Source: Candidatus Methylomirabilis tolerans
Lineage (GTDB): Bacteria > Methylomirabilota > Methylomirabilia > Methylomirabilales > Methylomirabilaceae
Direction: 5' to 3'
NCBI GenBank assembly: GCA_019912425.1
Contig: JAIOIU010000102.1
Location: 1 to 37,654, forward strand
Length of the DNA stretch: 37,654 nucleotides
Shown here: one piece after another, positions 4,277-37,654 of the stretch
Layout of the letters: each line of letters starts with the position of its first letter
How positions within the stretch are numbered: the first letter of the stretch is position 1
The notes under the pieces: model-generated
Database searches by the model: none
What the model saw: only the letters and a program-made list of their open reading frames with translations
What the model was told of the DNA's origin: nothing
Position numbers and translations under genes: made by a program

Positions 4277-6184
<1,908 letters not shown>

Positions 6185-6228
6185 CGTCACACCGTCATCG
6201 TAGCATACGGGGCTTCGCGCCAGCAAGG

Positions 6229-27382: not shown

Positions 27383-27727
27383 ATGAACAGGTTCACGAAG
27401 CGATTCGTTCCAGGGCTGATCGCCGTACTGCTCTTGAGCAGCCTGCTCCTCATTCCAGCCGAGCCCGTGCCGGCAAAGACAAAGTTCTTCTTCGGGCTGA
27501 ACGTCGGAGTTCCAATTGCGCCGTACCCGATGTATGCGTATCCCCCTCCGGCGCCCGTCTACTACCCACAGGTCTACCCACATCCTGCTCCGGCGCGCGT
27601 CCATCACCGGCCGGTCTACCGGGCCCATCCGCCATGCGCACAGGTCTGGACTCCTGGGTACTATGACTTCTATGGAAACTGGGTCTTCGGCTACTACCAG
27701 TCCGTCTGTCCCCCTTACGGCTACTAG
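27383..27727 (+). CDS. Pro/Tyr-rich exported protein
   Basis: 114 residues from the ATG at 27383, behind AAAGGAGG at an 8-10 nt distance; the frame is open far upstream but that part has no ribosome site or signal peptide. The signal FVPGLIAVLLLSSLLLIPAE precedes the mature part, which is rich in Pro, Tyr and His (YPPPAPVYYPQVYPHPAPAR) and ends in VWTPGYYDFYGNWVFGYYQS. The W-x-PG-YYD...W.G.Y ending resembles the YXWGXW-type repeat found in small envelope proteins of proteobacteria and NC10-like genomes. No activity can be read from it. The 320 bp after it hold the first DUF5615 remnant and the antitoxin promoter. Confidence 0.75.
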   Translation: MNRFTKRFVPGLIAVLLLSSLLLIPAEPVPAKTKFFFGLNVGVPIAPYPMYAYPPPAPVYYPQVYPHPAPARVHHRPVYRAHPPCAQVWTPGYYDFYGNWVFGYYQSVCPPYGY

Positions 27728-27796
27728 CCGAACGGGGTAGGCTCGTTAAATCCGGACCGCCAAACTACCTGAGCGGCGTGCTGCCGCTGGCCATCC

Positions 27797-27941
27797 GGCA
27801 GTCTGTGCTCGCTTCCGATCCCGAGACCACCCGTAGTGCCCCTTCGGTTCTACGCCGACGTTCACATTCCGCGTGCCATCATGCTTGGTCCCAGACTCCG
27901 CAGCGTGGACGTACTCACGCTCAAGATGATCACGTCTCCGC
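27797..27941. repeat. Direct repeat, copy 1 (DUF5615 region)
   Basis: About 145 bp closely similar to 29341-29488, in the same orientation and 1.54 kb apart: GGCAGTCTGTGCTCGC against GGCAGTCTCTGCTCGC, then ACCACCCGTAGTGCC against GCCACCCGTAGTGCC, and GATGATCA near the end. Both copies contain the start of a DUF5615-type gene with some 40 bp of shared upstream sequence. Confidence 0.8.
27836..27941 (+). pseudogene. DUF5615 PIN-like toxin fragment, copy 1
   Basis: From the GTG at 27836, VPLRFYADVHIPRAIMLG and RLRSVDVLT match the N-terminus of DUF5615 (Mut7-C/PIN-like) proteins, in which the FYADVHIP aspartate is a predicted metal ligand. After VDVLT the frame is lost: alignment with copy 2 shows two single-base losses (ACCGCGCAAGATGATC against ACGCTCAAGATGATC), and homology stops near 27941. 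About 35 of an expected 110-120 codons remain. DUF5615 proteins are usually toxin-like partners of DUF433 antitoxins; none is visible here. Confidence 0.65.
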
Positions 27942-27955
27942 ATAGATTTGTAGCC

Positions 27956-27985
27956 TTGACAGAGTGTAGCCTAGAGGCTACACTC
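27956..27985 (+). promoter_or_regulatory. Promoter with palindromic operator for the antitoxin gene
   Basis: A consensus -35 TTGACA (27956-27961), a 17-bp spacer and a -10 TACACT (27979-27984) are overlapped by a perfect inverted repeat: GAGTGTAGCC (27962-27971), TAGA, GGCTACACTC (27976-27985). The right arm covers the -10. A dimeric HTH protein bound there would block RNA polymerase. The HTH antitoxin starting at 28047, 62 bp downstream, is the natural candidate for autoregulation. Confidence 0.75.
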
Positions 27986-28046
27986 TTCGCAAGAACGATC
28001 TGTTCGCCAGGTAGCTTGACTCGTACGCAACCTCTAGGAGCAGACG

Positions 28047-28346
28047 ATGAGTAAAACCGTGACCAGTCGCTACGATGTAGCCGAGCACCTTCGAACCCCA
28101 GAGGAAATGGCGGCCTACCTTGAGGCGTGTCTTGAAGAGGCGAAGGGCGATGCCACCTTCATCGCCAAAGCGCTGGGAGACATTGCGCGTGCCAAGGGCA
28201 TGGCACAGGTCGCCCGCGATGCCGGCCTCTCCCGCGAGAGCCTGTATAAAGCGCTGTCCGGCGAACGCAGCCCCAGCTTTGACACCATCCTCAAGGTGGT
28301 TGCCGCGTTAGGATTGAAGTTGCACGCTGAAGCCGCTCATGGGTGA
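28047..28346 (+). CDS. Addiction-module antidote (HigA-like), orphan
   Basis: 99 residues. The N-terminus SRYDVAEHLRTPEEMAAYLE followed by EACLEEAKGDATFIAKALGD and IARAKGMAQVARDAGLSRES matches the putative addiction-module antidote family (TIGR02684, HigA-like). The XRE-type helix-turn-helix is MAQVARDAGLSRESLYKALS near residues 52-71. In the usual operon a RelE/HigB-like killer gene (TIGR02683) precedes and nearly overlaps it. Here 27986-28046 is too short for one and the upstream sequence is a toxin remnant of a different family, so the antitoxin looks orphaned. Its palindromic operator is intact. Confidence 0.85.
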   Translation: MSKTVTSRYDVAEHLRTPEEMAAYLEACLEEAKGDATFIAKALGDIARAKGMAQVARDAGLSRESLYKALSGERSPSFDTILKVVAALGLKLHAEAAHG

Positions 28347-28449
28347 CGCCTCACTGGAAGCTAGTGGAAAAAGACCTGAGGGGATTATAAATAATGGCTC
28401 TTCGTGAAATCCTATTGGGGGACACATTGAAACACTTTCGGCGGATGTA

Positions 28450-29046
28450 ATGAGCAACGGGGACGCTCGATTTGTCGCGCCGACCACCAGCCGGCTGCGA
28501 GTGATGCGCGACGGAGGGAGTATCATCCGTAGCGCGCGCATTCCCAAACCGGTCGCACTGGTGGACACGCGGGAGCGGGAACCCTTTCCGCTCCACGCGA
28601 ACCACCCGAACTGGATTGGCGGGGAAAGGCTGGCCACGCTGAACACTGGCGACTACACGTTGGAAGGGATGGAGAGCCTCCTCTCGCTGGAGCGAAAGAG
28701 CCTGGCGGACTTAGTGGCGTGCACGGTAACCTACCGACGGAGATTTATTGCCGCCTGCGGTCGGCTCGCTCGGTTTCGCTGAAAGGCCATTCTAATCGAA
28801 GCAACCTGCGAAGACCTCAAGGGCGGGTTGGGGCAGTGCGACATCCCCTCCGAGGTCCATCCCAATTCTATTTGCGGAACCCTGGACGCGATCGAAGCAA
28901 AGTTTGGCATCCCTGTCATCTACACTTCCACCGTACAGGATCTTGCGACGGAGCGCGCCGCGAGCTGGCTCTCAAAGCACTTCACCTACTGGTGGTTGGA
29001 GGAGCATGGCTACGGCCGGGTATTGATCGACTCGGACGGGCTGTGA
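28450..29046 (+). pseudogene. ERCC4-type nuclease interrupted by in-frame TGA
   Basis: A single frame of 199 codons broken once by TGA at 28780-28782. The first half holds PVALVDTREREPFPLHANHP (the ERCC4/XPF V-D-x-R-E metal site), then LNTGDYTLEGM and LLSLERKSLADLVACTV (the E-R-K-S motif). The frame then reads RLARFR, stop, KAILIEATCEDLKGG and continues without shift to SEVHPNSICGTLDAIEAKFG, IPVIYTSTVQDLATERAASW and ends VLIDSDGL at 29046. Homologous nucleases of this phage-borne type carry an aromatic residue at the stop position (R-W/Y-K/A-A-I). The loss is most simply a TGG-to-TGA change. Without readthrough the product would be 110 residues with the catalytic motifs but no C-terminal half. 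Confidence 0.75.
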
Positions 29047-29200
29047 CCGGGAGGGGACACTTCCACACCCAGACGCCGATACCACGAAAGGGCGGGCCGC
29101 GCGAGGGTTCGGGTAGGAGTTAATCGGAAGGATTTTGGCTCCTGCTAACTTCCACAAAAACGGTGATTGTGTCCTCCAACCTGTATTCTACCGTTTCAAT

Positions 29201-29265
29201 GAGTAATACACGTGTAGCAGAGGGGAAGACCAAGAAAGGATTTCAACAAATAGTGTCTGTCCCTT
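29201..29265 (+). repeat. Solo right end of a Y1-transposase mini-element
   Basis: 65 bp (GAGTAATACACGTGTAGCAG, then AGGGGAAGACCAAGAAAGG through AAATAGTGTCTGTCCC) about 88% like the right end of the mini-element at 35442-35506. No matching left end lies upstream. The stretch 29047-29200 shows nothing I can support. Confidence 0.75.
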
Positions 29266-29340
29266 TTATCCTTTTTCTTTTACGGACGGTACGGTAGCAC
29301 AGAGAAAGTCCTCGCCTAGCTATTCCTTCGCTGGTTCTTC

Positions 29341-29488
29341 GGCAGTCTCTGCTCGCCTCCGACCCCAAGGCCACCCGTAGTGCCATTTCGGCCCTACGCC
29401 GACGCTGGTATTCTGCGTGCTATCATGCTTGGTCTTTGACTCCGCGGCCTAGACGTGCTGACCGCGCAAGATGATCAAGCCTCCCGCT
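29341..29488. repeat. Direct repeat, copy 2 (DUF5615 region)
   Basis: Second copy of the repeat at 27797-27941, same orientation. Homology begins at the same upstream position and continues into the DUF5615 reading frame; copy 2 extends further into that gene. Confidence 0.8.
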
Positions 29489-29585
29489 TTACTGATCCGA
29501 TGTTGTTGGATCGCCCCACCAGCCTGGGGCGCATACTCTTCTCTTTCGACACCGACTTGCTCCTTCACGCTGGTCGCGACCAGTG
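29380..29585 (+). pseudogene. DUF5615 PIN-like toxin fragment, copy 2
   Basis: The GTG at 29380 opens VPFRPYADAGILRAIMLGL, then an in-frame TGA (29437-29439, where homologues have arginine), then LRGLDVLTAQDDQASRFTDP, LLDRPTSLGRILFSFDTDLL. This follows the DUF5615 pattern to about residue 65: the FYAD start, VDVLTAQ-D, DPELLDRAT, LGRVLFSxDxDLL with its second metal aspartates. The remaining half of the domain (AGIIYAHQ onward) is missing and replaced by a fragment of another gene. A nonsense change plus truncation makes this dead. Confidence 0.75.
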
Positions 29586-29696
29586 CTCGTCCACCAGATC
29601 GAGACGGACCTCCATCGATGCCAGGCCAAGGCCGTCACTAACTTCAAGAAACACCTGCCCGCTCCGCAGACAGGGAGAACGTACCCAAGATCCTGA
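29583..29696 (+). pseudogene. YhcG (DUF1016) nuclease fragment
   Basis: In a frame different from the DUF5615 remnant, 29583-29696 reads VLVHQIETDLHRCQAKAVTN then FKKHLPAPQTGRTYPRS and stops. The I-E-x-x-L..R.Q.KAVTNF..xLPAPQ pattern is the middle linker of YhcG/DUF1016 PD-(D/E)XK nucleases, which continues DLAxxTLKDPYxFDFL in intact members. Only about 28 codons of that family remain, abutting the toxin remnant. It is a recombination scar. Confidence 0.5.
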
Positions 29697-29714
29697 AAAC
29701 GCGAATATTATCTA

Positions 29715-29745
29715 TTGACATTGTAATATTCTCTGTATTACTGTA
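29715..29745 (+). promoter_or_regulatory. Promoter with palindromic operator for the RHH/GHKL operon
   Basis: TTGACA at 29715-29720 is followed 18 bp on by TACTGT-like -10 bases (29739-29744). Between them, and touching the -10, lies an inverted repeat GTAATA (29723-29728), TTCTCTG, TATTAC (29736-29741). The gene starts at 29778 with GGAGAGACG before the ATG. The AT-rich palindrome is a likely operator for a ribbon-helix-helix or winged-helix regulator, plausibly the first gene's own product. Confidence 0.6.
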
Positions 29746-29777
29746 CACGCCGTGATGCTAAGCATAGAGGAGAGACG

Positions 29778-30935
29778 ATGATTGTCTGTTTTAACTGTGA
29801 CTCTGAAACGAAGGTCAAAATGGATAGCCTGATGGCCAATGATCATTATACTGACTACAGTGAATTGATCGCCGTGGCTATGGCGAATCTCTGGATGCTG
29901 GATCGAGAGATTGCCGAAAAGGGCGCACTCGTGATCGGCGAAGGGACTCCGCTGTCCTTAAGCGTCCCATCATCCCGGCCTGTCAAGATTGCAAACCCGG
30001 TTCCAGCCACCTCGTCAGTCCCGCCGTCGCGCGAGCGCCCCCCCGCCAAAACCGCCGCGCCTCCCGCCGAACGTGCGCCGCTTTCCATCCCAGACTTGTT
30101 CCTGCCCGTTGGCTTGGATGGATTATCCGTCGCAACAGTCGATATTGAACGCCAAGAACCGATTACCGCGGATTCGTTCACGCTAGACCGCTGGCTGTTC
30201 GGCCAGTACAACAAACTGCTGCCCGCCAAGGCCAACTGCCGCGCCCTGGTCCGACTGGCCGCCGAGCACCCGGACGGCGAGCCGCTGGAAGAAACCGCCC
30301 CCCGCATCGCCGAAGTCGCCGCGCTGCTGGGCGACTGGCTGGCCGATTACGATCGCCGCCACCAGATCGGACGCGACGACGCCATGGCGACCGCCTTTCC
30401 CCGAAGCGGCCCCAACGCCGAAAAAAGCCGCGCACGCTACGCCAATCAGTTCGTCGGCAGCGTCAACAGCCAAGGGGCGCTCTCCGGCCTGCTCCAGGAT
30501 TATCGCTTGGCAGGTCTCGCGCCGGGGAACGGCCCACGTCTGCTGCCGACGAAACAAGGGATGAGCTTGGCCCGGCTCGCCAATCCCATCCTCGACGGAC
30601 ACCGGACGGAACCGGCGCAGAGGTTTTCAGCGGAAGAGACCGCGTTTCTGCTAAAGCACATCCGTTCCTTCGTGCCGGTGGAGGCGTTCGCCTTCCGAAC
30701 ACTCCTGCGGGCGATCGCCGATGCCGCGGACACGCCAGACAAACTGGATGAAGCGTTGCGCGTGTTCGTGCCGACCGACTCCAACCGTTCCCTCAGCTCG
30801 TCGTTCCTCACTTCGCAGCGTTCCGGCGCGCTCTCGCGCATGGCCGACCTTGGCCTGATCTCCCGCGTCCGGAAAGGGGTAAGGGTATCGTATGCAATGA
30901 CCGAGCAGGGACAAATCTTCATCAAGTCCAAGTAA
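29778..30935 (+). CDS. Putative RHH/winged-helix DNA-binding protein
   Basis: 385 residues; I know no named family. Residues 1-45 (ETKVKMDSLMANDHYTDYSE then LIAVAMANLWMLDREI) look like a ribbon-helix-helix or CopG-type dimerisation segment: strand, helix, then a Y-x-D-Y-S-E turn and helix. Residues about 60-105 are a Pro/Ser/Ala linker. A helical middle (SFTLDRWLFGQYNKLLPAKA, then LVRLAAEHPDGEPLEETAPR) follows. The C-terminus from about 290 (FLLKHIRSFVPVEAFAFRTL to SRMADLGLISRVRKGVRVSY) resembles a winged helix. The middle (about 30180-30600) is strikingly G/C-richer than both ends, which suggests mosaic origin. It lies 26 bp before the GHKL ATPase and shares its promoter. Role as repressor and as sequence-recognition partner are inferences. 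Confidence 0.65.
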   Translation: MIVCFNCDSETKVKMDSLMANDHYTDYSELIAVAMANLWMLDREIAEKGALVIGEGTPLSLSVPSSRPVKIANPVPATSSVPPSRERPPAKTAAPPAERAPLSIPDLFLPVGLDGLSVATVDIERQEPITADSFTLDRWLFGQYNKLLPAKANCRALVRLAAEHPDGEPLEETAPRIAEVAALLGDWLADYDRRHQIGRDDAMATAFPRSGPNAEKSRARYANQFVGSVNSQGALSGLLQDYRLAGLAPGNGPRLLPTKQGMSLARLANPILDGHRTEPAQRFSAEETAFLLKHIRSFVPVEAFAFRTLLRAIADAADTPDKLDEALRVFVPTDSNRSLSSSFLTSQRSGALSRMADLGLISRVRKGVRVSYAMTEQGQIFIKSK

Positions 30936-30961
30936 CCGTTCGGATAAGGAGAAAAGCGATC

Positions 30962-33481
30962 ATGACCGAACACGAAGCCAAGGAACTTTGTCTTGCGCTG
31001 ATGCGAGCGGACTCAGAAGACGAGGTTATCGACCTGCTCAAGAAGGCCGGATACTGGGATAAACAGGAAGATTGGCGTTTCTATGGTGACTACGAGAACA
31101 ACTACAACGCCATCGGCAACCAGCAAAGCCGTCCGGATGCCGCGTTGGTGGAAAAGCTCGTGAACTCCGTCGATGCCAGACTAATGAATGAATGTTTGGC
31201 TCACGGTATGAACCCCGAAGATGCAAGCGCCCCGCGAGGCATTCAAGAAGCAGTCGCTCTCTTCTTTGATGGTGAAAGTGCAGGAAAGACCTCGTTGGCG
31301 GGGTGCATTCGCGATTGGACCGACAGCAAGAGAACGGACGTTGCTCGGGGAATCGCTTTGACTGCCACAGGAGCGAAACCGGGAAGCGGGAAACCTTGTT
31401 TCACAATCGTCGATGCCGGAGAAGGTCAAACACCTGAGCAGATGCCATACACCTTATTATCTCTTAATCGTTCCAACAAACTGCGCATCCCTTTCGTGCA
31501 AGGTAAGTTCAACATGGGCGGAACTGGTGTCCTAAAGTTTTGCGGCAAGCACAATCTCCAACTGGTCATCAGCCGAAGGAACCCTACCATCCTTCAGCAT
31601 TGCAACGGGGCGCAACAGGACGATGGCAAATGGAGTTTCACGGTTGTTCGGCGTGAAGACCCGCAAGGAAACCGCAGAAGTTCCGTATACACATACCTTG
31701 CGCCTGTTATGGCAAATGCCAACAGCGACCACAAACGTGTTCTTCTTCGATTTTACGCTAACACCCTTCCCATATTCCCAGAAGGTAAGCAGCCCTATGC
31801 CAGGAGCGTAGAGTGGGGAACGCTTATCAAACTTTACGAATACTCGGCTACTGGGTTCCAATCGCATATCTTGATGAAGGATGGTCTCCTCGGACGCGTT
31901 GATTTGCTGCTACCGGAAATTGCCTTACCTATGAGATTCCATGAGTGTCGCGACTACAAAGGGCACGGAGGAAGTACCGAGACGACCCTTACAGGCGTGC
32001 GCGTCAGGCTCGAGGACGACAAACAACAGAACCTTGAGGAGGGTTTTCCTGCTTGTGCGCCGATGATGGTTAATAGCGAGGAAATGCTCGTGTCCATCTA
32101 TGCATTCAAAAAGAAACGCAGCGAAGCTTATCGCAAGAACGAGGGAATTATCTTTGTAGTTAATGGGCAGACCCATGGACACCTAACACAGGATTTCTTC
32201 TCGCGAAAGAAAGTCGGACTGTCGTATTTGGCCGATTCGATTCTCGTGAGCACTGATTGTACAAAGCTAAGTGGTCGCGCCCGTGAAGACCTTTTCATGA
32301 ACAGCCGGGACCGTTTAAGCGGCGGCGATCTTCGCCAGCAAATAGAAAACAGTCTTGAGGAGCTTCTAAAGCAGCACCAAGGCCTCCGGGAGTTGAAAGA
32401 GCGAAGGCGCCGCGAAGAAATCGAATCCAAGCTGGACGATGCAAAACCTCTTGAGGACATTCTCGATAAGCTATTGAAACAATCGCCGGCTCTCTCGAAC
32501 CTGTTTCTTCAAGGCCTGAGAGCCTCCACACCGTTCAAAACGGTTGCAGTACAAGCACAAGAACAAGAGTTCAGGGGGCGGCGTTTCCCGACGTTCTTTA
32601 AGTTCAAAGGCAAAGACTACGGGCATATTCTCGACCGAGAATGCCCCATCAACATGAGATGCCGGTTGGCTTTTGAGACCGACGCTGAAAACGAGTATTT
32701 CTCGCGAGCCATTGATCCCGGTGAATTCCACTTGTTGTTGAAGCGAGGCGAAGGTGAGTCATCCGTACAAAATTACGTGCTGAATCTCCAGAACGGAATA
32801 GCTACGCTCAGCCTTTCGCTTCCCGAAGATACCACTTTGGGCCAGAGCTTGCGGTATAGCGCTACGATGAACGATTACTCCCGTACGGAGCCTTTCATCA
32901 ATACATTTCAGGTGACCGTGAAAGAAGAGCAGCAAGCGCGCGGGAACAGCAGCGATAGAAGGAAGCCTCCAAGCAAAGAAGAAGGAGAAGACCGGGAAAG
33001 ATCTTCTGGAATCAAGCTGCCAAATATTCGATTGGTCGAAGAAAAGGACTGGCAGGACCAATCGCCTCCATTCGATAAGTATGCTGCAATGCGCATTATC
33101 AACGCCGGTAGCAACGAAGACGGCGAGGAAGAGTCTGTATCGAACGTTGTCTATGACTTCTACATCAACATGGACAATCTCTATCTCAAGACTGAATTGA
33201 AGAGTACGAGAGCCGAGTCAGCCTTGGTAAGGGCGCAATTCAAATTTGGCATGGTATTGATGGGCCTTGCGCTGCTTCAACGGGACATTGAGGACCAGCG
33301 GAAGCAATCTGGCGGCGAAGAACAGGCGGAAGACGAGAATGGCAACGGAGTGAGCATAGAGAAGAAGGTGGAAGAGTTCTGCCGGGCGGTTGCCCCGGTG
33401 GTAATCCCGATGATCAACTCGCTTGGCTCCCTATCCGTGGAAGATGAGCCTGTTCTTGGTGCGTCTGGCGAAGCAACGTGA
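30962..33481 (+). CDS. GHKL (MutL/MORC/Hsp90-like) ATPase, defence-type
   Basis: 839 residues. The N-terminal ATPase has the full GHKL motif set: N-box EKLVNSVDARLMNECL (E64, N68, D71), G1 box VDAGEGQTPEQM (D151-G155) and G2 box GKFNMGGTGVLKFCGK (181-190 onward), preceded by LSLNRSNKLRIPFVQ. The G2 loop forms the ATP lid. A transducer-like domain follows to about 450, then a charged coiled-coil-like stretch (LKQHQGLRELKERRRREEIE), beta-rich modules (about 520-650), a Ser/Lys/Glu linker and a helical C-terminus. I see no nuclease motif. Such ATPases occur in MORC/paraMORC and MZA-type defence systems. GC content is visibly lower than in the core genes, consistent with horizontal gain. A GGATAAGGAG site precedes the ATG. 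Confidence 0.85.
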   Translation: MTEHEAKELCLALMRADSEDEVIDLLKKAGYWDKQEDWRFYGDYENNYNAIGNQQSRPDAALVEKLVNSVDARLMNECLAHGMNPEDASAPRGIQEAVALFFDGESAGKTSLAGCIRDWTDSKRTDVARGIALTATGAKPGSGKPCFTIVDAGEGQTPEQMPYTLLSLNRSNKLRIPFVQGKFNMGGTGVLKFCGKHNLQLVISRRNPTILQHCNGAQQDDGKWSFTVVRREDPQGNRRSSVYTYLAPVMANANSDHKRVLLRFYANTLPIFPEGKQPYARSVEWGTLIKLYEYSATGFQSHILMKDGLLGRVDLLLPEIALPMRFHECRDYKGHGGSTETTLTGVRVRLEDDKQQNLEEGFPACAPMMVNSEEMLVSIYAFKKKRSEAYRKNEGIIFVVNGQTHGHLTQDFFSRKKVGLSYLADSILVSTDCTKLSGRAREDLFMNSRDRLSGGDLRQQIENSLEELLKQHQGLRELKERRRREEIESKLDDAKPLEDILDKLLKQSPALSNLFLQGLRASTPFKTVAVQAQEQEFRGRRFPTFFKFKGKDYGHILDRECPINMRCRLAFETDAENEYFSRAIDPGEFHLLLKRGEGESSVQNYVLNLQNGIATLSLSLPEDTTLGQSLRYSATMNDYSRTEPFINTFQVTVKEEQQARGNSSDRRKPPSKEEGEDRERSSGIKLPNIRLVEEKDWQDQSPPFDKYAAMRIINAGSNEDGEEESVSNVVYDFYINMDNLYLKTELKSTRAESALVRAQFKFGMVLMGLALLQRDIEDQRKQSGGEEQAEDENGNGVSIEKKVEEFCRAVAPVVIPMINSLGSLSVEDEPVLGASGEAT

Positions 33482-33504
33482 TCCAATCGCCGACGAATAG
33501 GGAG

Positions 33505-34704
33505 CTATGAACGCTTGTGTATCAACAGGACTTCTTTTGAAGAAGGTGTACTGCCTTTGCGGTCCGCGTAAAACTTCCTATTGGGGACAGTTCGCCATGA
33601 TCGGCCGTCAATGGCGTGAGGCAGATCATCGAGAAGGACTTCATCAAAGCCACACTCTTGAAGGATTTTCAGAAAAAGAGGCAATTGCCATTCAGGGGTC
33701 GAGAATGCTACAAGCTGGACAAGCCACGTGTTTGTGTCAGCGATAGTGGAAAGCGCCATGTAGCATTCCCTCATGTTTTCAAAGTAGCCTTCCAGCCCCC
33801 TTTGATTGCGATCTCCAAAGGTATAGAACGCCGCTCCATTCCCATCAAGGCAATTTGCGATCCAATACGGTGCGGGGGTTTCTTTGCGCCCGTTGATCTG
33901 CCAGCGATGATAGAGCACATGCACTCCGGGATAAGGTGGTGAGGTAAGAATGAGTCTTGGAGCGGAAGAAAATGGATAGTTGGGTGGTTCTGCAATGTCA
34001 TGGGCGGAAAGATAGAGACATGCAGGTGCGGTATCGTCGTTGCTGGAGCATCCGAACCTGAGCAAATCAAGTTCTCTGCGAAACTCGAGCGCTCCTTCGA
34101 TCATCTCCTCGGCATAGGAGATAAGCTGCTCTCTGAAATCACGGGCCGATGGGTGATATTTGCGGCAATCGACCGCCCATTGTGCGGTCTTGAGCAGGAG
34201 GCACCTAACAAAGTCTCGCTGTCTGTTGTTGTGTAGTGAATCCAGGCCAGCAAGGGCAATCTCTATGGTCTTTCGAATCGGCCAAGTGGTGCGTCCACTG
34301 ATGTTTCTTTGGTAGCCTTGAGATATCCAATCAACCGGCCTGTCCGAAATTCTCGTAAGTTTCAAATCCGACTGCGCTTGCTCGACCCATGTGCGAACGT
34401 CTGAAATATCCTTATCGGTGACTAGTGTGGTTTTCGTTCTGGAAACAAATACGGCCAAGCTGTTCAAATCGGTCCCAATACTTCTACGGCCCAAACGCAT
34501 GGCTTCAACAAGGGTCGTTCCGCCACCCATAAAGGGATCATACACGATCTCGCCCGGCTGAGTGAAAAATTCAATAGCGGCCTCAGCAAATCGCGGCGAA
34601 AAACGAGCGGGATAACGGTAGAACGCATGAGTCAATCCAGTGACAGGCTTCTTATCATTGATAGACTCGATAAGAGAAGAGATGTCGGTCCGTATTTCTT
34701 TCAT
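33505..34704 (-). CDS. DNA methyltransferase (TSPPY type)
   Basis: 399 residues. Motif I for S-adenosylmethionine is VYDPFMGGGTTLVEAMRLGR (D56-T63) and motif IV is LILTSPPYPGVHVLYHRW (T254-Y258), the catalytic TSPPY box of amino-methyltransferases acting on N4 of cytosine or N6 of adenine. About 190 residues separate the two, room for a target-recognition region between them. HAFYRYPARFSPRFAEAAIE near residue 26 is a common start in these enzymes. The stop faces the end of the GHKL gene across 23 bp, so the two transcripts converge. The XRE regulator lies 185 bp upstream on the same strand. Target sequence unknown. Confidence 0.92.
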   Translation of the reverse strand: MKEIRTDISSLIESINDKKPVTGLTHAFYRYPARFSPRFAEAAIEFFTQPGEIVYDPFMGGGTTLVEAMRLGRRSIGTDLNSLAVFVSRTKTTLVTDKDISDVRTWVEQAQSDLKLTRISDRPVDWISQGYQRNISGRTTWPIRKTIEIALAGLDSLHNNRQRDFVRCLLLKTAQWAVDCRKYHPSARDFREQLISYAEEMIEGALEFRRELDLLRFGCSSNDDTAPACLYLSAHDIAEPPNYPFSSAPRLILTSPPYPGVHVLYHRWQINGRKETPAPYWIANCLDGNGAAFYTFGDRNQRGLEGYFENMRECYMALSTIADTNTWLVQLVAFSTPEWQLPLFLKILQECGFDEVLLDDLPHAIDGRSWRTVPNRKFYADRKGSTPSSKEVLLIHKRS

Positions 34705-34857
34705 TCAGGTTCGCCTCGGTCAATTATTGGAGTAATCGTGTGCGCACCGCCTAAGCACATATTCGATAACGTCACTCGCCGGATCTCGGTCCGTGACTGA
34801 GCAGGTCGGAGAGTGCAACCCGGTGAGGCCGCGGGCATAACCCGGGGTTAGACGCCC

Positions 34858-34886
34858 GGACTCGCAAGGTCGCGACTTGGGAGTCC
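34858..34886. other. Stem-loop behind the XRE gene
   Basis: GGACTCGCAAG (34858-34868), 7-nt loop, CTTGGGAGTCC (34876-34886): 11-bp arms with one mismatch. It begins 4 bp after the XRE stop in the transcript direction and is not followed by a T-run, so it is either a weak terminator or a 3'-end processing hairpin. The rest of 34705-34857 shows no gene. Confidence 0.5.
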
Positions 34887-34889
34887 ATC

Positions 34890-35102
34890 TCACTTACTCT
34901 TCTTGCTTCCGACTTCCTGCCACAATTCCTCGACGCGGCGCTGGGCCAGGGGCGACGGCCTGCCCTTCCCGTTCTCCCAGCGGTTGACGGTGGAGACCGT
35001 GACGCCGAGTCTTGCGGCGAACTGCTCCTGTGTCAGATCCAACGCGGCGCGAAGCGTCTTTACGGTCCTCTCCGAGGCTTTATGGGCCATTCCTCGATTC
35101 AT
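34890..35102 (-). CDS. XRE-family helix-turn-helix regulator
   Basis: 70 residues, hardly more than one helix-turn-helix. ERTVKTLRAALDLTQEQFAA then RLGVTVSTVNRWENGKGRPS is the XRE/Cro fold with the QEQFAARLGVTVSTVNRWENG core, and PLAQRRVEELWQEVGSKKSK is the tail helix. An ATG four codons later (35090) is an alternative start. It is upstream of the methyltransferase on the same strand, the position of a controller (C) protein of a restriction-modification locus, although C proteins normally lie beside a restriction nuclease as well. Confidence 0.85.
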   Translation of the reverse strand: MNRGMAHKASERTVKTLRAALDLTQEQFAARLGVTVSTVNRWENGKGRPSPLAQRRVEELWQEVGSKKSK

Positions 35103-35179
35103 CCTTTGGCAATTCCAGCGTTCCCAAGCATCTTACAAAGCAAATGATAGGTTACTTGCACGGCAGAGTCAAGCGCTTC

Positions 35180-35210
35180 AGCATGGCATCCCGAATTTCC
35201 TGTAACCGAG
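35180..35210. repeat. Short dispersed repeat, copy 1
   Basis: AGCATGGCATCCCGAATTTC followed by CTGTAACCGAG is nearly identical to 37253-37283 (one T/G and one A/G change in the conserved part). Same orientation, 2.07 kb apart, lying outside the genes between them. Confidence 0.75.
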
Positions 35211-35215
35211 GGAAA

Positions 35216-35508
35216 AATAGGGATAGATACTATTATCGTGACAATTCGTGGGGCTTGCGATCATGATCGTGCATGCCACGGATTGCTCGAATCGTTGCTC
35301 CCGGCCACCCGTATCATGTGAGGCAACGAGGGAATGATCGCCAGGCGATCTTTCGGAACGACAGCGATTCGAAGGCCCACGACGACAGAACGGCTACTGC
35401 GAAGAGACGGGTTCATCTGGGAGGTGCGCAGGACACTGGACGAGTAAGACACGTGTTGCAGAGGGGAAGACCAATAAAGGATCTCAAGAAATAGTGTCTA
35501 TCCCTATA
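35216..35508 (+). mobile_element. REP-associated (Y1) transposase mini-element
   Basis: About 293 bp bounded by 19-bp inverted repeats, AATAGGGATAGATACTATT (35216-35234) and AATAGTGTCTATCCCTATA (35490-35508), 17 of 19 pairing. Inside, 35273-35494 is a 73-codon frame that begins PRIARIVAPGHPYHVRQRGN, the start of REP-associated tyrosine transposases (IS200/IS605-like Y1 fold). It then jumps to a C-terminal-like tail, QRGRPIKDLKK. The catalytic H-x-H and tyrosine segments (about 150 residues) are deleted, so it can move only with a transposase supplied elsewhere. A solo copy of its right end lies at 29201-29265. Confidence 0.75.
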
Positions 35509-35579
35509 TCCTATATCCATTCAGGCGATTACGTACCGAAGGCGCCCAGGGTTGGCTCGCGGGGACAAGCTCGAAGCGC

Positions 35580-37082
35580 TCATCGAAGCCCCGCAAGTGC
35601 GCGCAGCCGCTCGTAGAGCCGCACCATGCCCATGCTGTCGCGCTCACAGTAACGAAGGAGGTTGTGCCGGAGCACCTGCCGCTCGGTGGCGGTGAGGGCG
35701 TCGGCACCGAGCAGCAGCGTCTCAAGTGCCGCCGATGCGGAGCCGCCGTCCTGGATCTCGAGGTCGTTGTAGCCAAGCCCTGGCACGAGCGCCGGCAGGA
35801 CCTTCTTGATGCTGAAGCTTCCCCCGAAGTCCGGGTGATAGACGTGGTCGCGCACAATCGGAAGAAGATCGCGGATCCGACGCGAGAGCGCTACTAGCTC
35901 GCCCTCCATGTGCGGGAGCACTTCGATCAGTCCGTCGATGCACCGTTGCTCGAAGGGCGCGTTGTAGGCGAGCACCGTGTTGACGCCCGCACACGCCGCG
36001 ATGAGCGCGTGTGCGAGCTGCTCACGCGGGTCGTCGGGGCCCTCAGTCAACCATGCGCGGTGTTCGACTCCGTCGGCCTTGAGTACGTGGCAACTGAACT
36101 GCACCGGCACCAGGGCGTAAGGGCGGCAGCCCGGCCAGACCGGGATGGCGGGGTTCACGGTCTCGAAGTCGAGGAAAGCGATCGGCGGAGCCATGGAAGC
36201 GAGTGCGCGGCGGAGGTCACGCTCGACGATCACTTCGCCCGCCCGGACGCTACGAATCTGCCGGCGCGCTGTGGGCGAGGCAGCGAACTTGCGCGGCAGG
36301 TCGAAGAGCGTCTTGTAGCCGTCGGCGACGTACTCCTCCGCCTTGGCCTTACGGATCCCATAGAGCGTGCTGACGTGGTGAACCGGGAGGGGAGGCCAGC
36401 ATCGTTTGATGAACGGGCAGGCATACGGCGTCGTGCAGTGCGGACCGGTCTTGACCTCCGGCAGCGGACCCGCCAACGTCGACAGAAGCTCCCCGGCCTG
36501 TTTCGGCACGGCTCGCAGCGGGGAGCGGATCAGCGACGTGACGTTCTCGCGCACAAACAGGTTCGAGAGGTCGGGGTGACGGCACTCGCGGTTGAGGTGC
36601 ATGACCTCTGCACGTGTGACCACGAGCCCGGCGCGTCGGACGACGTGCGTCTGGACGGCGACATCAGGGATGTGCTCGTTCTTGATGTCGAGCGTGGCCT
36701 TAACCTCGACCAGAACGAACCCGTCGCGGCGCCGTTGGAGAATGTCCACGGCGACGAAGATGCCGTCCTCGAGGAAGCTCGCCTCGTAGACAACCGGCGC
36801 TCCATCCGCGATTGCCAGCGCCGTGTCGGCCAGTCTGCGCTCGATCTCGTGGTGCGGGAGGTCGATAAGGACACCGCCTGGCACGAACGTGCGCGCGAGC
36901 TCGCCGACGCGCCTGCCTCGCTCGAAGATCACCCGCTGCAACTCCTCGCCGGCGGCGAGCTCCGGCGCCTCGGGCTCGTGCACCATCCACCAGAGCATCT
37001 TCGGACACTGCAGTCCTGATACGAACTGGGACTTCGAGAGCCGTATGACTGGTCGCACGCTGGTCCCCCTTGACTTTACCAC
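35580..37082 (-). CDS. DUF2779 fused RecB/Cas4-like and DEDD-like nuclease
   Basis: 500 residues with two nuclease halves. Residues about 1-240 are PD-(D/E)XK, RecB/Cas4-like: VYEASFLEDGIFVAVDILQR then DGFVLVEVKATLDIK gives the D and E-x-K active site. Four cysteines (SGLQCPKMLWW near 25, then C-x4-C-x5-C in the KTGPHCTTPYACPFIKRCWP segment) would hold a 4Fe-4S cluster. Residues about 290-495 are the DUF2779 domain with RNase-H-like DEDD features: PPIAFLDFETVNPAIPVWPG (D-F-E), YNAPFEQRCIDGL, then LRYCERDSMGMVRLYERLRA. Family function is unproven; single-strand DNA processing in repair or defence is inferred. It is on the minus strand after the accessory genes. Confidence 0.9.
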   Translation of the reverse strand: MVKSRGTSVRPVIRLSKSQFVSGLQCPKMLWWMVHEPEAPELAAGEELQRVIFERGRRVGELARTFVPGGVLIDLPHHEIERRLADTALAIADGAPVVYEASFLEDGIFVAVDILQRRRDGFVLVEVKATLDIKNEHIPDVAVQTHVVRRAGLVVTRAEVMHLNRECRHPDLSNLFVRENVTSLIRSPLRAVPKQAGELLSTLAGPLPEVKTGPHCTTPYACPFIKRCWPPLPVHHVSTLYGIRKAKAEEYVADGYKTLFDLPRKFAASPTARRQIRSVRAGEVIVERDLRRALASMAPPIAFLDFETVNPAIPVWPGCRPYALVPVQFSCHVLKADGVEHRAWLTEGPDDPREQLAHALIAACAGVNTVLAYNAPFEQRCIDGLIEVLPHMEGELVALSRRIRDLLPIVRDHVYHPDFGGSFSIKKVLPALVPGLGYNDLEIQDGGSASAALETLLLGADALTATERQVLRHNLLRYCERDSMGMVRLYERLRALAGLR

Positions 37083-37252
37083 TGGAGTGCATTGAAGAGG
37101 CCTAGGAGTCGAATGGCCTGGCGGCTACGTCGCATCGCTCTATCCCAACGACTGCTCTGCTACACACGGGACCCTCAGAGGCCAACAAAATAGCTCAGGA
37201 GTACTCGGAGCGACTCACTCTATCCTTCGACTGCAAAGGGTGTCAAGGCGAA

Positions 37253-37283
37253 AGCATGGCATCCCGAATGTCCTGTGACCGAA
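37253..37283. repeat. Short dispersed repeat, copy 2
   Basis: AGCATGGCATCCCGAATGTC, CTGTGACCGAA: second copy of the 35180-35210 repeat in the same orientation. Confidence 0.75.
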
Positions 37284-37333
37284 GGTGCCACAGTGTTGAT
37301 GTATACTATGGTTCTCAAGGAAGCAAAAGACCC

Positions 37334-37391
37334 TGTCATCTCAACACTCGCCTGGCGCTGTGGTGCGTAGTGTGTTTGCAGCGAGATGACA
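37334..37391. repeat. Inverted repeat upstream of dinB
   Basis: TGTCATCTC (37334-37342) pairs with GAGATGACA (37383-37391), and inside it AACACT (37343-37348) can pair with AGTGTGTT (37369-37376), giving a branched hairpin of about 58 nt. It sits about 110 bp before the dinB start and could be a regulatory hairpin or a mobile-repeat end. Confidence 0.55.
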
Positions 37392-37504
37392 CGCTGTACC
37401 GAAGCGCGGTATGATCTGACCCAGGGTGGAATCACGAGCTTGGACGGAGAGGGCGACGGTTTACCGTGCGAAGGGCTCTGCTACCAAGGAGAGCAGTGAG
37501 GTCC

Positions 37505-37654
37505 ATGCAGACGGGTGGCGATCGATTAGGGGAGCACAGATGGATCCTCCATGTCGACATGGATGCCTTCTACGCTTCGGTCGAGCAGCGCGATCACCCG
37601 GCCTATCGCGGGCGTCCCGTGATCGTAGGGGCCGATCCCCAAGGCGGCAGAGGC
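37505..37654 (+). CDS. dinB: DNA polymerase IV, N-terminal 50 codons
   Basis: The ATG at 37505 (GAGG 5 nt upstream) opens a frame to the window edge. [20 protein letters not shown] is the Y-family polymerase start, with the catalytic aspartate of H-V-D-M-D-x-F and the steric-gate region [22 protein letters not shown] follows, as in DinB. Pol IV is an error-prone translesion polymerase. Only the first palm segment is present, so length and further motifs cannot be judged. Confidence 0.95.

What the first reader, a model, noticed from the sequence alone, without database searches (positions are those of the whole stretch)
28450..29046. ERCC4-type nuclease with one in-frame TGA in a genome that encodes SelB
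Only one TGA (28780) breaks an otherwise clean 199-codon frame, with conserved sequence on both sides. Since selB is in the window, selenocysteine insertion must be considered. But the stop replaces a residue that is aromatic in relatives, not a cysteine, and the neighbouring toxin remnant also has a TGA nonsense, so decay is more likely. A truncated product keeping the catalytic V-D-x-R-E and E-R-K motifs is also possible.
Basis: partly seen in the sequence, partly recalled or inferred. Interest (0 to 1): 0.6.

Follow-up and report, generated by a model that had tools for sequence, protein, structure and literature searches.

The report
Freshly broken ERCC4-type nuclease gene
A bacterial gene for a small DNA-cutting enzyme, which turns up in unrelated bacteria, appears recently broken here by one stop codon where every intact relative examined has tryptophan; it is an ordinary young pseudogene, not a hidden selenoprotein.

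Summary
The 199-codon frame at 28450-29046 encodes an ERCC4-domain nuclease with a single in-frame TGA at 28780-28782 (codon 111). All 17 intact relatives aligned, from many phyla and one Rhodoferax plasmid, carry Trp (TGG) there; none carries Cys. Besides the TGA, this copy departs at only 1 of the other 53 columns invariant among relatives, and it is as constrained after the stop as before. The lesion is therefore recent, or a sequencing error. The genome does have selA, selB and tRNA-Sec, but no stable hairpin follows the TGA and the site is Trp, so selenocysteine is rejected. tRNA-Trp is ordinary and TGA ends other genes, so there is no sign of a code change. The gene lies between two decayed copies of a DUF5615 toxin-type gene, one with its own TGA nonsense. 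A same-species genome matches at 99% up to 27470, where its contig ends, and the rest was not found in it. A 110-residue product would keep the VDTRE, GDY and ERK motifs but lose about half of the nuclease fold. A side finding may be more interesting than the target: a second tRNA-Sec-like tRNA with UCA anticodon and U73, conserved in four genomes of the genus.

The parts
28450..29046 (+). ERCC4-type nuclease gene with one internal nonsense codon; 198 codons plus stop
   Evidence: Frame; Pfam ERCC4 over cut-off; relatives up to 78% identical over residues 1-198
28780..28782 (+). In-frame TGA, codon 111; Trp (TGG) in all 17 intact relatives aligned
   Evidence: Codon table across relatives; alignment A2
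28450..28779 (+). Part translated before the stop (110 residues), with VDTRE, GDY and ERK motifs
   Evidence: Translation; motif columns conserved in relatives
28783..29043 (+). Untranslated but still conserved second half of the nuclease
   Evidence: No departures from invariant columns after codon 111; low pN against pS
28047..28346 (+). HI1420-type addiction-module antidote gene, intact; no partner toxin gene recognised beside it
   Evidence: PF21716 and TIGR02684 over cut-off
27785..27939 (+). Left direct repeat: remnant of a DUF5615 toxin-type gene, frameshifted
   Evidence: Repeat pair, 80% identity; similarity to the open DUF5615 frame on C82
29329..29583 (+). Right direct repeat and DUF5615 remnant, with TGA nonsense at 29437-29439

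Best explanation
This is a recently inactivated, horizontally acquired gene for a small stand-alone ERCC4-type (XPF/Hef/Mus81-superfamily) DNA nuclease. In the intact ancestor the ~198-residue protein would have used the VDxRE...GDY...ERK metal site to cut branched or flap DNA (inferred from the family). One nonsense codon at invariant Trp111 now ends translation after 110 residues, before about half of the nuclease fold is made. The product is expected to be inactive and degraded, apart from trace full-length protein that ordinary leaky reading of UGA might give. Shown here: the frame, the stop, Trp at the site in relatives, constraint on both sides, decayed neighbours, no match to the region in a same-species genome. 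Inferred: loss of activity, recency, horizontal origin, branched-DNA substrate.
For: One TGA in an otherwise open 198-codon frame. Trp, codon TGG, in 17 of 17 intact relatives. 52 of 54 invariant columns kept, none lost after codon 111 except none, and pN/pS alike on both sides and similar to pairs of intact relatives. Two flanking DUF5615 remnants with a frameshift and a TGA. Other remnants of the same nuclease family with stops or truncation in other genomes and on contig C82 of this one. No other match in 98 related genomes, none in the same-species genome G120.
Against: The full reading frame is still well conserved, which an old pseudogene would not be; so the change is very young or an error in the sequence. 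No reads, transcript or protein data were available.
Confidence: 0.8

Rival explanations
1. Sequencing or assembly error: the gene is intact with TGG, and the TGA is one wrong base in a draft assembly of 167 contigs.
For: It is the only lesion, and 52 of 54 invariant columns are kept. The assembly is fragmented.
Against: The adjacent DUF5615 genes carry independent lesions, so the neighbourhood is really decaying. Nonsense at Trp is also seen in another remnant of the family (L025, codon 173).
Confidence: 0.12
2. Selenocysteine insertion at UGA, using the genome's SelA, SelB and tRNA-Sec.
For: selA, selB and a standard tRNA-Sec are present.
Against: Trp in 17 of 17 intact relatives, never Cys. 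No hairpin better than shuffles after the TGA. Rfam finds nothing in the window.
Confidence: 0.01
3. Programmed or efficient read-through of UGA, restoring Trp by near-cognate tRNA-Trp, or inserting another residue by the second UCA tRNA, so that the gene stays functional.
For: The lost residue is Trp, and tRNA-Trp with a 4-bp anticodon stem reads UGA in E. coli (PMC13092985). A second UCA tRNA exists. The next base is A, a leaky context as recalled from memory.
Against: This genome's tRNA-Trp has anticodon CCA and a standard 5-bp stem; no UCA form of it appeared in the pattern search. TGA ends selB, argG and the DUF72 gene, and 13 window genes have no in-frame TGA.
Confidence: 0.03
4. A functional 110-residue short nuclease.
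For: The VDTRE, GDY and ERK motifs all precede the stop.
Against: Trp111 lies before a core strand; the conserved HPN...EAKFG...PVIY block shared with Hef is lost. No short relative of this form was found; the truncated copies found keep the C-terminal part instead.
Confidence: 0.04

Closest known systems
ERCC4 nuclease domain of archaeal Hef (Pyrococcus furiosus, PDB 1j22)
   Same: Same domain by sequence (E=3.3e-5) and best fold match; GDY...ERK metal-site motif and HPN block shared
   Different: Hef fuses the nuclease to a helicase; this protein stands alone, with its own N-terminal ~35 residues and a C-terminal helix of HFTYWWLE type
ERCC4 domain-containing protein of Rhodoferax ferrireducens plasmid (WP_011458674.1)
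   Same: Full-length relative, 55% identical, Trp at the site
   Different: Intact; on a conjugative plasmid; different neighbours
ERCC4-type nuclease of haloviruses (Halorubrum tailed viruses 25 and 27; PHROG 3490)
   Same: Same domain; 31-35% identity
   Different: Distant; the match does not cover the whole protein

Membership tests
ERCC4/XPF-superfamily nuclease (PF02732) | Match to the domain profile over its curated cut-off | tested here: met
   33 bits against a cut-off of 24, read through the stop
ERCC4/XPF-superfamily nuclease (PF02732) | Metal-site motif GDxn-ERK | tested here: met
   GDY 67-69 and ERK 81-83, conserved in relatives
ERCC4/XPF-superfamily nuclease (PF02732) | Cleavage of branched or flap DNA | not testable with these tools
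   Needs a biochemical assay
Nonsense pseudogene | Stop at a site where intact homologues have a sense codon | tested here: met
   Trp TGG in 17 of 17
Nonsense pseudogene | No functional product | not testable with these tools
   Needs expression data; the alignment to Hef suggests loss of half of the fold
Selenoprotein | Sec machinery in the genome | tested here: met
   selA, selB, tRNA-Sec
Selenoprotein | Cys or Sec at the site in homologues | tested here: not met
   Trp in all 17
Selenoprotein | SECIS-like hairpin just after the UGA | tested here: not met
   Folding z-scores -0.21 to +1.20
UGA=Trp genetic code | tRNA-Trp(UCA) or 4-bp-stem tRNA-Trp(CCA), and TGA inside conserved genes | tested here: not met
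   Canonical tRNA-Trp(CCA) with 5-bp stem; TGA used as a stop and absent inside 13 window genes

The most novel reading that the evidence does not exclude
UGA is partly suppressed in this organism, for instance by the second UCA tRNA with U73, so that some frames with an in-frame TGA, including this one, still yield full-length protein.
Probability: 0.03. Interest if true: 0.65.

Novelty: new member of a known kind. Interest (0 to 1): 0.13.

Why it matters
It removes a false selenoprotein candidate from a genome that does make selenoproteins, by a clean criterion: the residue at the site in homologues. It also points to a mobile, stand-alone ERCC4 nuclease family found in many phyla and often left as remnants, whose role is not known.

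Tried and rejected
SECIS fold: no hairpin better than shuffles; Rfam scan of the window: nothing. Code reassignment: tRNA-Trp and the stops of known genes speak against it. Integron-like cassette: the flanking 155-nt direct repeats first looked like recombination sites, but they are remnants of a DUF5615 gene and fold no better than shuffles. Conserved operon partner: almost none recurs across relatives; the two Desulfobacteraceae loci share the gene just upstream (ARPP-1 in L006), and nearby genes elsewhere vary (GmrSD-type restriction genes in two, DnaB helicase in Geobacter). Anti-phage assignment: no PADLOC hit for the nuclease. AlphaFold model: mean pLDDT 56, used only for the order of elements.

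Full report
Observation. The frame 28450-29046 translates with one internal stop, TGA at 28780-28782, codon 111. Read through, it is an ERCC4-domain protein (Pfam PF02732, 33 bits; Hef nuclease 1j22 by sequence, and as best fold match). The VDTRE, GDY and ERK motifs all lie before the stop.

Relatives. A scan of bacterial and archaeal genomes returned 24 loci in many phyla, the best 78% identical over the whole length, and a plasmid of Rhodoferax ferrireducens carries a 55% identical copy. In the window's own group, none of 98 other genomes, 13 of them in the same genus, has a match. A patchy spread at such identity suggests horizontal movement (inference). Several genomes hold truncated, frameshifted or stop-bearing copies, and the window's genome has a second fragment, residues 156-195 only, on contig C82.

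The TGA site. At codon 111 all 17 intact relatives aligned have Trp, and every one uses TGG. No relative has Cys. The window copy keeps 52 of 54 columns invariant among relatives; the two departures are the stop and V36A, and none lies after codon 111. Nonsynonymous divergence is low relative to synonymous on both sides of the stop and similar to that between intact relatives. The lesion is thus very recent or an error of the sequence.

Recoding tests. The genome has selB (window 4277-6226), selA and a standard tRNA-Sec. Selenocysteine is still rejected: the homologous residue is Trp, and the RNA after the TGA folds no better than shuffles. A Trp reading of UGA as a code is not supported: tRNA-Trp has anticodon CCA and a 5-bp anticodon stem, not the 4-bp stem that reads UGA in E. 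coli (PMC13092985), and TGA ends known genes. Trace leaky reading of UGA by tRNA-Trp is possible and would restore the ancestral residue (own knowledge), but it is unlikely to sustain the gene.

Surroundings. The gene sits with an HI1420-type antidote gene (28047-28346) between two 155-nt direct repeats. Through an open homologue on contig C82 these repeats are seen to be remnants of a DUF5615 toxin-type gene, the left one frameshifted, the right one with TGA at 29437-29439. A same-species genome, G120, matches the window at 99% up to 27470, where its contig ends; for the searched stretches from there to 37600 it gave only dispersed repeats and short or partial matches. G120 is about 99% complete, so absence of this region is likely but not proven.

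Truncated product. Codon 111 precedes a predicted strand 112-117 and the following HPN...EAKFG...PVIY block shared with Hef. A 110-residue product would lack about half of the fold. The model is weak (mean pLDDT 56), so this rests mainly on the alignment to Hef.

Side finding. The genome has a second Rfam tRNA-Sec match over the cut-off (57.9 bits) with UCA anticodon, 12-bp 7/5 acceptor-T arm and U73. The same-species genome and two other species of the genus have it; the other species change acceptor pair 3:70 from U-A to C-G on both sides. It resembles the reported selC* tRNA-Cys class in U73 and UCA, but those have an 8/4 arm (PMC7609411). Its role is open, and nothing links it to the nuclease gene.

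Verdict. An ordinary, recent nonsense pseudogene of a mobile stand-alone ERCC4 nuclease in a decaying toxin-antitoxin neighbourhood.

Noticed in passing
L031:1501-1598 (G000:C18:9326-9423): Second tRNA-Sec-like gene with UCA anticodon, U73 and a 7/5 arm, beside the standard tRNA-Sec (L030). It recurs in the same-species genome G120 and in G001 and G008 of the genus, with a compensatory change at acceptor pair 3:70. Possibly a relative of selC* tRNA-Cys.
   Followed up: partly
L030:1774-1840 (G000:C162): An int-alpA RNA (RF02996, 45.4 bits) lies just downstream of the standard tRNA-Sec gene, which suggests an integrated element there.
   Followed up: no
window 27471-37600: Not found in the same-species genome G120, whose matching contig ends at window 27470; apart from dispersed repeats and short or partial matches the region looks strain-variable.
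   Followed up: partly
window 29778-33481: Two long neighbouring frames (385 and 839 aa) match no Pfam, NCBIfam or PADLOC family; next to them lie a DNA methylase-like frame (33505-34704) and a DUF2779 protein (35580-37082).
   Followed up: no
L003-L026, L042: A stand-alone ERCC4 nuclease family spread over many phyla at up to 78% identity, with few shared neighbours and many remnants that keep the C-terminal part.
   Followed up: partly
window 29201-29272 and 35214-35512: Dispersed repeat, up to about 300 bp, with several copies in G000 and in G120.
   Followed up: no
G000:C102:40829-41922 (L044:3829-4922): Tandem array with a period of about 126 nt, beyond the window's end.
   Followed up: no
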